In this document: positions 44,796 to 47,248 of the stretch, in pieces
Layout of the letters: each line of letters starts with the position of its first letter
How positions within the stretch are numbered: position 1 is the stretch's first letter
NCBI RefSeq assembly: GCF_014217805.1
Contig: NZ_CP055156.1
Coordinates: 310,001-374,000, forward strand
Length of the DNA: 64,000 nucleotides
Reading direction: 5' to 3'
Source: Adhaeribacter swui
GTDB taxonomy: Bacteria > Bacteroidota > Bacteroidia > Cytophagales > Hymenobacteraceae
The notes under the pieces: model-generated
Database searches by the model: none
What the model was told of the DNA's origin: nothing
The model's input: the letters and a program-made list of their open reading frames with translations, nothing else
Program-made: the position numbers and the translations under genes

Positions 44796-45225
44796 ATGTC
44801 AATACTTCAAATAGATAGTTTATACAGATATATAAATGATCAAGGCTTTAAGGATAATTTTATTTATCCTTTAGCTTTAGCCTTCATAATTGGCATTTTT
44901 ACCTTAATATGGAAATTTGTAAATAATGTACTTAAAAAGCTTTTTAGAAGAAAGAGCATAACTACAATACAGCCAAATAGTAAGCCAACGAGCATAATTG
45001 AATGTGTAACAGTCAACACATTTTCAGAACTATGCCAATTGTTGCTTAAGCCTTTAGAAGATAATAAATATGTTTTTAAAACCTTTGGCCCAAACTCCTC
45101 CTTTAGTGAATTAACTTCTCTTAGAGTAGACATGACTTTGTGGCATAATGCACGGCTTGAAAATATAATTCCTAACAATGAGTTAATTAGATGCCTCATC
45201 GAAAAGAATAGCCATTTAATCCCAG

Positions 45226-45251
45226 TGTAAGCTTCCCTGAAAATAGAACTG
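45226..45251 (+). repeat. Left terminal inverted repeat of the IS
   Basis: Starts TGTAAGCTTCCC and ends ATAGAACTG; it pairs with the right end at 46409-46433 with a few mismatches. Confidence 0.85.
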
Positions 45252-45289
45252 TTTGAGAAGAGAAAAAAATTTAACTTAGAACAGTGCTT

Positions 45290-45556
45290 ATGAAAAGAAA
45301 AACCTTCAGTCCCCAACAAATTGCCAAAATCCTTAAGGAGTTTGAGGAAGGCAAAAGCGCCGCCGAGATTAGCCGGGAGCATGGCCTGAGCCAGGCAGCT
45401 TTTTACAAATGGCGGCAGCGCTACAATGGCATGGATGCCACGGAACTCAAACGGCTCAAGGACTTAGAAGAAGAGAACCGACGGCTGAAAGCCATGTACG
45501 CCGAACTAGCCTTGGATCTAAAGCTAGCCAAAGAAATCATTGAAAAAAAGCTTTGA
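45290..45556 (+). CDS. IS3-family transposase OrfA
   Basis: 88 residues from ATG (a GTG two codons upstream is possible). A helix-turn-helix domain (FSPQQIAKILKEFEEGKSAAEISREHGLSQAAFYKWRQRY) is followed by a leucine-zipper helix (LKRLKDLEEENRRLKAMYAELALDLKLAKEII). OrfA binds the IS ends. Its last codons contain A-AAA-AAG (45544-45550), a -1 slippery heptamer in the correct phase to yield the OrfAB fusion transposase. The stop overlaps the orfB start (TTGA). Confidence 0.93.
   Translation: MKRKTFSPQQIAKILKEFEEGKSAAEISREHGLSQAAFYKWRQRYNGMDATELKRLKDLEEENRRLKAMYAELALDLKLAKEIIEKKL
45544..45550 (+). promoter_or_regulatory. Programmed -1 frameshift site in the IS
   Basis: A AAA AAG lies in the OrfA reading phase (GAA AAA AAG CTT TGA), and a -1 shift leads into the orfB phase, as in most IS3-family elements. 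Confidence 0.85.
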
Positions 45557-46389
45557 AGCCCTGCCAAAAGCGACAGCTCGTGGAAGAGGTGTACCAGCAA
45601 CCACAAGCCGGCATCAGTAGGGCGTGCCGGGTATTGAACTTAAGTAAGTCGGTTTACTACTATCAAGTTGTTAAAGATAACCAGCCGCTGGAAGAAGCTT
45701 TACGGCAGAAAGCCGAGCAGCATCCCCGCGAAGGCTTTTGGAAAGCTTTCAGGCGGTTGCGCCAAGAAGGTTATCTCTGGAATCATAAACGGGTTTATCG
45801 CATTTACAAGGCTATTGGATTGAATATCCGGCGCAAAGCGAAAAGGCGCTTACCCGCCCGCACTCAACAGCCCTTGCAAGTACCAGAGTCGTTGAACCAC
45901 ACTTGGTCGATTGATTTTATGAGTGATGCTTTGGAAAACGGGCGAAAGTTCCGCTCCTTCCATGTCCTAGATGATTTTAACCGAGAAGCACTGCACATGG
46001 AGGTAGACTTTTCGTTGAAGAGCAATCGGGTAGTCTGGGTACTTAATCATTTGATCAGGCGAAGGGAAAAACCAAAACAGATTCGAATGGATAATGGACC
46101 AGAGTTTATTGCTAGCTTAATGACGGAATGGAGCCAGATGCAAGGCATTGAGTTGATTTATATTCAACCCGGCAAGCCGACCCAGAATGCTTTTGTGGAA
46201 CGCTTTAATGGCACTTTCCGGAGGCAGGTGCTAGATGTCTACATGTTTGAAAACCTGGAGGAAGTAAGAGAAATTACTTCTACTTGGGTAAACGACTATA
46301 ACCATAAACGACCACATGATGCTTTAGCCGGAATGCCACCCAGTGAGTACGCCAGAAAAAAACAATTAGAACTAATATTATCTGCTTAA
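45553..46389 (+). CDS. IS3-family transposase OrfB (DDE integrase)
   Basis: 278 residues. An HTH_21-type N-terminal part (CRVLNLSKSVYYYQV, GFWKAFRRLRQEGYLWNHKRVYRIYKAIGL) precedes the retroviral-integrase-like catalytic core with Asp121 (WSIDFMSD), Asp180 (IRMDNGPEF) and Glu216 (NAFVERFNGTFR). The last two are separated by 35 residues, the classical DD(35)E. Independent start at TTG is possible, but OrfB is probably made mainly as the OrfAB frameshift product. The frame is intact, so the enzyme should be active. Confidence 0.95.
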   Translation: MKPCQKRQLVEEVYQQPQAGISRACRVLNLSKSVYYYQVVKDNQPLEEALRQKAEQHPREGFWKAFRRLRQEGYLWNHKRVYRIYKAIGLNIRRKAKRRLPARTQQPLQVPESLNHTWSIDFMSDALENGRKFRSFHVLDDFNREALHMEVDFSLKSNRVVWVLNHLIRRREKPKQIRMDNGPEFIASLMTEWSQMQGIELIYIQPGKPTQNAFVERFNGTFRRQVLDVYMFENLEEVREITSTWVNDYNHKRPHDALAGMPPSEYARKKQLELILSA

Positions 46390-46408
46390 CCAAATTTATA
46401 CTTTTACC

Positions 46409-46433
46409 CAGTTCTAATAATGGGAAGCCGACA
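46409..46433 (+). repeat. Right terminal inverted repeat of the IS
   Basis: Ends GGGAAGCCGACA, complementary to the left end; followed by the second CCAG target copy. Confidence 0.85.
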
Positions 46434-46894
46434 CCAGAATCTTACTCTGAACTATTTAGAAAATTAAACTCTCATATTTTTGCCTTTAAGAAACATGTTG
46501 AAAATCCTAAATTTGACTATACTGAACATCAATTTCCAATTGGATTAGAAAAAGTTGTAAAAGAGGAATGTTTCAATAGTAACCAGAACAATAAGACTTA
46601 TTTAAAAATAAAAAGATGGCTTTCTAAAAACTTATTAGACAGCTATATCAAAGAAGCGTTTATTTTTGGATCAGTTCTTTTTTATACTTCTTTAAATAAA
46701 GATGTTGATGTCGTATTAATCTTAAATACAGCAGAAAAAGAAGCTATATTGGCAATAAATAACAAGATTAAAACTTTAAAATCATCCTTTAAAAATAAAT
46801 TCAAAAAAGGATTGCACATTACCATTTTTTCAAGCCGAGAAAAGTCATTTTACAAAAAATTCATTTTAAAAAATCAGTATATAGATCAAATATA

Positions 46895-47248
46895 ATGGGA
46901 AAAGATTTACACCGTACCATACTACCTTTTATCATGAAGGCTATTTCAAATCATAATAAGGTTAAAAATGTGGAAGTTGTTAATGACCCTGACTTTTATA
47001 TACTGAAGGTAATTAGGAAACAAAATTTTAGAGATTTATATGTTATTTTAAGTGACGACTATTTCTTTGGTGATTATTCAGCAATAGTTATGCATTCGAC
47101 TCTTAAGAATGGAGGATTTATTTTGATTGCTCGTCCAGAAACAGATGATTACGATAGCAATGAACCTGAAAATAAAATTGGTATAGGAAAGATTAAAAAG
47201 TTATTAGGAGCTTTACATTTAGATGAATATTGGACGTTCCATAGTTAA
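46895..47248 (+). CDS. Unknown small protein, partner of the split nucleotidyltransferase gene
   Basis: 117 residues, cytoplasmic, AT-rich codons. I do not recognise the family. It has an N-terminal helix (LHRTILPFIMKAISNH) then alternating strands: VKNVEVVNDPDFYILKVIRK, FRDLYVILSDDYFF, SAIVMHSTLKNGGFILIARPE, and ends with KKLLGALHLDEYWTF. The start ATG overlaps the stop of the upstream gene (TAATG), a sign of translational coupling, so the two proteins probably worked together. With the first gene split, its expression now depends on read-through past the IS or on an IS promoter. Confidence 0.72.
   Translation: MGKDLHRTILPFIMKAISNHNKVKNVEVVNDPDFYILKVIRKQNFRDLYVILSDDYFFGDYSAIVMHSTLKNGGFILIARPETDDYDSNEPENKIGIGKIKKLLGALHLDEYWTFHS

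What the first reader, a model, noticed from the sequence alone, without database searches (positions are those of the whole stretch)
44796..47248. Cryptic two-gene operon: membrane-anchored nucleotidyltransferase plus unknown partner, broken by an IS
Seen: removing the IS and one CCAG copy rejoins the frame exactly into 295 codons; the restored protein has a membrane helix, a middle domain with FGPNSS and NPKFDYTEHQFP, and a GS-x9-DVD signature of minimal nucleotidyltransferases; its stop overlaps the start of a 117-residue unknown protein; the region is visibly more AT-rich than the IS and the flanking core genes and lies beside tRNA genes. Known: small nucleotidyltransferases are common in toxin-antitoxin (MNT-HEPN) and signalling-nucleotide defence systems and often have a coupled partner. 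Inference: an acquired stress, defence or toxin-antitoxin-like module not described in this form.
Basis: partly seen in the sequence, partly recalled or inferred. Interest (0 to 1): 0.75.

Follow-up and report, generated by a model that had tools for sequence, protein, structure and literature searches.

The report
Broken copy of undescribed bacterial defence-like module
A mobile element has cut in two a gene belonging to a so far unannotated bacterial gene set, in which a swappable damaging part is coupled to a small nucleotide-adding enzyme and a partner protein, and which is probably used against viruses.

Summary
A 1,208-bp IS3-type element (45226-46433, CCAG duplication) interrupts a low-GC gene whose halves are in register (295 codons), and its stop overlaps a 117-codon gene. 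The pieces alone match no Pfam, NCBIfam or PHROGs family above cut-off. A motif scan found intact natural relatives. They show a conserved module: helical middle domain, minimal nucleotidyltransferase (NT) and partner, with an exchangeable N-terminal domain: membrane helices (window, Vibrio, Ferrimonas, a prophage-like contig), SMEK nuclease (Anaerolineae), or HNH nuclease like CBASS effectors (13 loci, NT as a separate third gene). Wherever context could be read, partner and NT lay next to it. Of 14 plasmid regions read, 8 of 8 with the middle domain had both; 0 of 6 without it had either. The NT of a relative is predicted to have a minimal-NT fold like MNT antitoxins. The partner may have an endonuclease-like fold (modest model) with the catalytic lysine replaced by tyrosine. 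Some copies lie beside Drt3 or Shedu, and the window's tRNA-side slot holds other defence-type genes in three sister genomes. I read it as a guard-type defence module, uncharacterised and broken here. The biochemistry is inferred.

The parts
44796..45225 (+). N piece of the broken gene: membrane helix and first half of the middle domain (ORF runs on into the IS, stop ends at 45230)
44853..44933 (+). membrane-like helix (residues 20-46)
   Evidence: Kyte-Doolittle scan
45021..45225 (+). first half of the conserved middle domain (FGPNSS ... LRxDxxxWxxARxExIxPNN)
   Evidence: alignment with 11 other rows that are not from the window
45222..45225 (.). target-site duplication CCAG, left copy
45226..46433 (+). 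IS3-type insertion sequence, 1,208 bp, one of three identical copies in the genome
45284..45556 (+). IS transposase orfA (HTH_Tnp_1)
   Evidence: E 1.1e-22
45553..46389 (+). IS transposase orfB (integrase core)
   Evidence: E 2.9e-26
46434..46437 (.). target-site duplication CCAG, right copy
46438..46895 (+). C piece of the broken gene: second half of the middle domain (HIFAFKKH...FDYTEHQFP) and the NT domain; stop TAA 46893-46895
46566..46892 (+). minimal nucleotidyltransferase domain; GS at 46668-46673, DVD at 46701-46709
   Evidence: alignment; weak PADLOC PDC-M05A match E 0.001; fold of its relative L078
46895..47248 (+). partner gene, 117 aa, intact; possibly PD-(D/E)XK-like fold, with [DE]-x-Y in place of [DE]-x-K
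47323..47407 (-). tRNA-Leu(taa), right boundary of the variable slot

Best explanation
This is an IS-broken copy of a modular, defence-type system with three functional parts. Part 1 is an N-terminal effector (HNH or SMEK nuclease, or membrane helices) fused to a helical middle domain that acts as its switch. Part 2 is a minimal nucleotidyltransferase, fused to the middle domain or encoded as the last gene. Part 3 is a small partner, possibly of restriction-endonuclease-like fold, whose catalytic lysine is replaced by tyrosine. Shown by sequence: the module, its conserved order, the exchange of N-terminal domains and the conserved NT motif. Inferred: the NT adds nucleotides to the switch/effector or to the partner and so keeps the effector off (a guard, as MNT antitoxins do to HEPN toxins). 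The partner binds nucleic acid or another infection cue, and infection lifts the block, so the effector damages DNA or the membrane. In this genome the module should be dead: the N piece lacks the NT, and the C piece has no start known to be used.
For: Partner homologous across loci (33% id, E 1e-22 pairwise; 10-row alignment). Middle domain conserved (13 rows, two of them the window pieces). NT motif DxD in 9 of 9 rows, G-S in 8 of 9. N-terminal exchange: SMEK_N E 4.6e-33; HNH like CBASS SAVED-HNH effectors, E 2.3e-27 to 5.5e-26 in three proteins tested; TM. Linkage: of 14 plasmid regions, 8 of 8 with the middle domain carry partner and NT, 0 of 6 without it (Fisher 3.3e-4, rows not independent). 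A partner-first search gave two loci, both with the NT protein beside it, one of them already known. NT fold nearest to MNT antitoxins and HI0073. dN/dS 0.110 and 0.067. Context: drt3a/b, Shedu, phage-type genes by eye beside L070 and L074; NsnA-like, DruF-like and PIN_8 genes near the same tRNA in three sister genomes. Fusion of NT and switch in one chain favours action in cis.
Confidence: 0.55

Rival explanations
1. Messenger system, CBASS-like: the NT makes a nucleotide signal on infection, the middle domain binds it and switches on the fused nuclease or membrane effector, and the partner is the infection sensor.
For: The HNH domain is the one that sits before SAVED sensors in CBASS effectors, and the middle domain takes that position. 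The NT is a separate gene in 13 loci.
Against: The NT is a minimal one of about 100 residues, nearest in fold to MNT antitoxins. Chains with NT and effector fused are hard to square with a diffusible signal. No SAVED domain was found in the proteins scanned.
Confidence: 0.25
2. A type II-like toxin-antitoxin pair for plasmid and prophage upkeep: the effector is the toxin, and the NT and/or partner neutralises it, without phage sensing.
For: Copies lie on plasmids and in phage-like contigs, though those collections were the ones searched. The NT fold is nearest to MNT antitoxins.
Against: Defence-gene neighbours and the tRNA-side slot with defence-type genes. Effector exchange of this kind is typical of defence systems (recalled). 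Three components rather than two.
Confidence: 0.15
3. A partner-guided restriction system: the endonuclease-like partner recognises DNA, the HNH or SMEK domain cuts it, and the NT only modifies or repairs ends.
For: Two nuclease effector types; partner model resembles restriction enzymes among others.
Against: Membrane-anchored versions have no nuclease domain; the partner has Tyr in place of the catalytic Lys in 10 of 10 rows.
Confidence: 0.05

Closest known systems
HEPN-MNT (HepT/MntA) toxin-antitoxin
   Same: Minimal NT of similar predicted fold with GS-x-DxD, coupled to a presumably damaging protein; among the nearest solved structures (title of 7aer: tri-AMPylated HEPN toxin with MNT antitoxin)
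   Different: No conserved HEPN Rx4-6H motif in the middle domain or in the window's partner; exchangeable nuclease/TM modules; an extra partner; NT often fused to the effector chain
CBASS with HNH-SAVED (Cap4/Cap5-type) effectors
   Same: The HNH domain matches these effectors at E 2.3e-27 to 5.5e-26; effector + sensor domain + nucleotidyltransferase logic
   Different: The middle domain stands where SAVED would; minimal NT, no CBASS cyclase match; partner without a family
PADLOC candidate PDC-M68A (and PDC-M05A, PDC-M63A, PDC-S09 for the NT)
   Same: HNH half matches PDC-M68A at E 1.7e-26 to 9.3e-32; NT domains match PDC-M05A (E 0.001) and PDC-M63A (E 1.8e-5)
   Different: Only the first ~115 of 253 PDC-M68A positions are matched, so its second half seems different; what those candidate systems contain besides was not available here
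Nuclease-associated short Argonaute systems (SMEK/HNH/DUF4365-APAZ)
   Same: Same kinds of exchangeable N-terminal nuclease domains (SMEK match E 1.2e-28; start of the abstract of PMC10810196 seen in the listing)
   Different: No Argonaute or APAZ match in the proteins scanned; nucleotidyltransferase instead
Hailong and Clover nucleotide-guard systems
   Same: A nucleotidyltransferase product that keeps an effector off; passages of PMC12265719 say such signals negatively regulate immune activation
   Different: No dNTPase seen here; Hailong's own components could not be compared (paper not held)

Membership tests
Minimal nucleotidyltransferase (MNT / NTP_transf_2) | GS-x9-10-DxD motif | tested here: met
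   DxD 9 of 9, G-S 8 of 9 (L062 has G-G); window has GS-x9-DVD
Minimal nucleotidyltransferase (MNT / NTP_transf_2) | minimal NT fold | tested here: met
Minimal nucleotidyltransferase (MNT / NTP_transf_2) | third acidic residue of the active site | tested here: inconclusive
   Asp in 3 of 9, His in 6 of 9 at the aligned place, window included
Minimal nucleotidyltransferase (MNT / NTP_transf_2) | passes Pfam NTP_transf_2 cut-off | tested here: inconclusive
   relative L097 passes (29.3 bits against 21); P0003 just below (20.7); the window C piece has no hit
HEPN-MNT toxin-antitoxin | HEPN partner with Rx4-6H motif | tested here: not met
   in the middle domain no column pair is shared by more than 2 of 13 rows; in the partner 5 of 10 rows have R-x4-H at one place, the window's partner and four others do not. 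The fold search did not list HEPN, which by itself excludes nothing
CBASS | CD-NTase synthase | tested here: not met
   no CBASS cyclase family among PADLOC hits of the five NT-bearing sequences scanned (window C piece, L078, P0003, L080, L097); NT is about 100 residues
CBASS | SAVED or other known sensor after the HNH effector | tested here: not met
   in L080, L091 and L097 only the first ~110-145 residues match the effector profiles; no SAVED family hit beyond the HNH part
Short Argonaute system | Argonaute MID-PIWI and APAZ | tested here: inconclusive
   no such hit in the two L078 proteins; the locus is only 4,014 bases and its other ORFs were not scanned
PD-(D/E)XK nuclease superfamily (partner) | alpha-beta-beta-beta-alpha-beta core | tested here: inconclusive
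PD-(D/E)XK nuclease superfamily (partner) | catalytic [DE]-x-K | tested here: not met
   Tyr in place of Lys in 10 of 10; acid two before it in 9 of 10

The most novel reading that the evidence does not exclude
A so far undescribed class of immune system: a shared helical switch domain onto which HNH, SMEK or membrane effectors are plugged, held off in cis by nucleotidylation from a minimal NT and triggered through a pseudo-nuclease partner that senses the invader. It would be a third nucleotidyltransferase-based design beside CBASS and HEPN-MNT.
Probability: 0.35. Interest if true: 0.85.

Novelty: new variant of a known kind. Interest (0 to 1): 0.72.

Why it matters
In the scans made here neither the middle domain nor the partner has a Pfam, NCBIfam or PADLOC family, and the records read show only 'HNH endonuclease', 'hypothetical protein' and sometimes 'nucleotidyltransferase'. 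If the module works as proposed, it adds a modular immune system in which one switch domain serves several killing parts. It also makes a clear question testable: is a minimal NT in defence a guard that modifies its own effector, or a messenger synthase? The fused and split versions allow both to be compared.

Tried and rejected
Direct searches found nothing usable. Families: Pfam, NCBIfam, PHROGs (12, 13, 15; best sub-threshold rows PF04439 E 0.21 for the N piece, outside the NT part, and PHROGs E 0.076-0.28). PDB sequences: C piece and partner (16, 17; best E 0.053, not a plausible relative). Plasmids: all three (21-23; at E 10 in 30-32 only an HNH gene at E 6, later shown to be a relative, and one MmgE/PrpD gene). 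Phages: C piece and part of the N piece (35: 120 records; the 20 listed are mostly topoisomerase genes plus two Listeria phages, E 0.3-10, taken as chance). Viral contigs: partner and C piece. Genome contigs: C piece only, six exact 8-residue patterns. 291 genomes of the order: C piece and partner. A search for PADLOC PDC-M05A (28) gave 126 of 296 genomes and 7 of 14 controls; I took it as a broad NT or helical match and did not use it. The N-piece search of 198 genomes (34, 37) gave 38 genomes at E <= 0.5 including the own one, weak and many with stops; none used. E. coli genomes hold no DNA relative of the Vibrio copy. A pattern with a spacing error found 0; corrected in 72, it found three stretches, all loci from which the pattern had been drawn, so it is no independent proof of pairing. 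Partner profile: four matches at E 0.0015-0.0082 beside the own one (77) were not followed up. Papers: searches listed no description of this gene set; the library lacks most subscription papers, and two wanted papers were not held.

Full report
What is in the window. Between a glycosyltransferase-like gene (43567-44487) and tRNA-Leu (47323) lies a low-GC stretch (pieces and partner 0.245-0.305 against 0.421 for the window). It holds a gene cut by an IS3-type element and a following 117-codon gene. The IS is one of three identical copies in the genome; comparison of the three gives its exact ends and a 4-bp duplication each. The two gene pieces are in register (430 + 458 = 888 nt), and the partner ORF is open throughout, so the insertion looks recent (inference).

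Finding relatives. The pieces and the partner pass no family cut-off; the one hint was a weak match of the C piece to PADLOC PDC-M05A (E 0.001). Direct searches of plasmids, phages, viral contigs, species genomes (C piece only) and 291 genomes of the order gave no relative at the limits used, apart from an HNH gene at E 6 that was recognised later. A degenerate pattern for W-x3-R-x3-I-x-PNN-x2-I in viral contigs gave 13 stretches. Of these, 8 encode the middle domain and 5 are chance. One, L070, is a full relative: two membrane segments, middle domain and NT (323 aa), followed at once by a partner homologue (33% identity, E 1e-22). A partner alignment then found two loci in viral contigs, L070's own and a second one (L074), whose NT protein reads the same as that of Vibrio furnissii L082. 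A tighter pattern gave 3 stretches in viral contigs (2 real, both known loci). In species genomes it gave 8, of which 4 are real (L078 Anaerolineae MAG, L080 Kurthia MAG, L082 V. furnissii, L084 Ferrimonas) and 4 chance.

Architecture. Fused type: N-terminal module + middle domain + NT, then partner (window, L070, V. furnissii L074/L082, Ferrimonas L084, Anaerolineae L078). The N-terminal module is one membrane helix (window), two (L070), or a SMEK nuclease domain (L078; Pfam SMEK_N E 4.6e-33, NCBIfam E 4.5e-21). Split type: HNH + middle domain / partner / NT as three overlapping or adjacent genes, in L062, L063, L068, L072, L080 and eight plasmid loci, 13 in all. The HNH domain was tested by profile in four of them (L080, L091, L097, L099); in the others it rests on the record's annotation or on reading by eye, and in L062 its start is missing. 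It matches CBASS SAVED-HNH effector profiles at E 2.3e-27 to 5.5e-26 and PADLOC candidate PDC-M68A at 1.7e-26 to 9.3e-32, but only over the HNH part. In five plasmid loci (L097-L101) the partner matches the profile twice, as a tandem repeat of itself.

Linkage test. A tblastn of the L063 HNH protein against plasmids gave 253 records, 18 of them with at least 80% of the query covered. I read 14 regions: 13 of those 18 (the five left out look like near copies of ones read) and one with 76%. Every ORF was scored with profiles of partner, middle domain and NT. Eight of 14 have the middle domain, and all 8 have a partner (E 6.8e-40 to 0.0047) and an NT (E 5.2e-19 to 0.032) immediately downstream. 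The weakest NT, L099, is annotated as a nucleotidyltransferase in its record; that of L092 is only 72 aa. The other 6 of 14 have an HNH-type protein without the middle domain (one stray row at E 0.55) and no partner or NT row up to E 1. Fisher's one-sided value is 3.3e-4, with rows that are related to each other. Three middle-domain stretches (L061, L065, L066) run into contig or stored ends, so their context could not be judged. The pairing is therefore real wherever it could be tested, but most fused loci were found by searching for their own parts, and the corrected partner-motif scan only returned loci it was drawn from.

Selection and context. The L070 and L074 copies differ with dN/dS 0.110 (NT protein) and 0.067 (partner), so both genes are maintained. 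Plain defence-type neighbours in 3 of the 8 plasmid loci: drt3a/drt3b directly downstream in Novosphingobium, a Shedu gene directly upstream in Phaeobacter, and DUF4238 near the Ensifer copy (its defence role is recalled). L070 and L074 lie among phage-type genes, by eye. In sister genome G177 the same slot (glycosyltransferase 58%, mutS 93% identical, same two tRNAs) holds a PIN_8 gene instead (E 8.1e-25). Near the same tRNA stretch, G577 has an NsnA/GmrSD_N-type gene (E 3.1e-68) and G579 a DruF-type ORF cut by the locus end (E 1.1e-50). Of the six sister loci looked at (L119-L124), these three carry defence-type genes, one a gene without a family match in Pfam or PADLOC, one a response regulator (by eye), and one was not readable on that side. 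So the module sits in a variable slot that can hold defence cargo.

How it most likely works. Shown: exchange of N-terminal modules, a conserved switch domain, a conserved NT motif, a conserved partner. Inferred: the NT nucleotidylates the switch/effector or the partner and holds the effector off, because the NT is nearest to MNT antitoxins and is fused in cis in four intact loci. The partner carries the infection cue. The messenger alternative remains open, since the NT is separate in 13 loci. In this genome the module should not work as a whole.

Comparison and novelty. It works like CBASS, HEPN-MNT and short-Argonaute nuclease systems in its logic, but it fails a defining feature of the first two and could not be fully tested for the third (membership table). 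Literature searches in the held library listed no description. I saw passages only of PMC12265719 and PMC12839542, and the start of the abstract of PMC10810196 in a listing. Statements about CBASS Cap effectors, MNT polyAMPylation in general and APAZ roles beyond these are recalled.

Noticed in passing
L119, L120, L121 upstream of the tRNA stretch; window 44488-47322: The slot beside tRNA-Leu/tRNA-Gly/mutS varies within the genus: PIN_8, NsnA/GmrSD-type and DruF-type genes lie there in three sister genomes, which suggests a defence-gene hotspot.
   Followed up: partly
L062:1-1680; L092:4558-5574: Other copies of the module also touch mobile elements: in L062 a transposase-type ORF (by eye) directly abuts an HNH gene lacking its start, and in L092 the NT ORF is only 72 aa long and is followed by IS66 genes.
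   Followed up: no
L097-L101, second gene (about 213 aa): The partner is duplicated in tandem within one protein, suggesting that the single-domain form acts as a dimer.
   Followed up: no
L043:1507-1602: A stretch with stops in another genome of the phylum resembles the FGPNSS...W part of the middle domain and may be a decayed copy or chance.
   Followed up: no
L123:442-1392: A 317-aa ORF beside the same tRNA stretch in genome G575 has no Pfam or PADLOC match at E 0.001; it may be another unknown cargo gene.
   Followed up: no
L080, L091, L097 HNH proteins: The HNH half matches PADLOC candidate PDC-M68A about as well as or better than CBASS effectors, but only over the first ~115 of 253 positions; what PDC-M68A's second half is was not checked.
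   Followed up: no
window 45226-46433; L034, L035: Three 100% identical copies of this IS3-type element in one genome point to recent transposition.
   Followed up: yes
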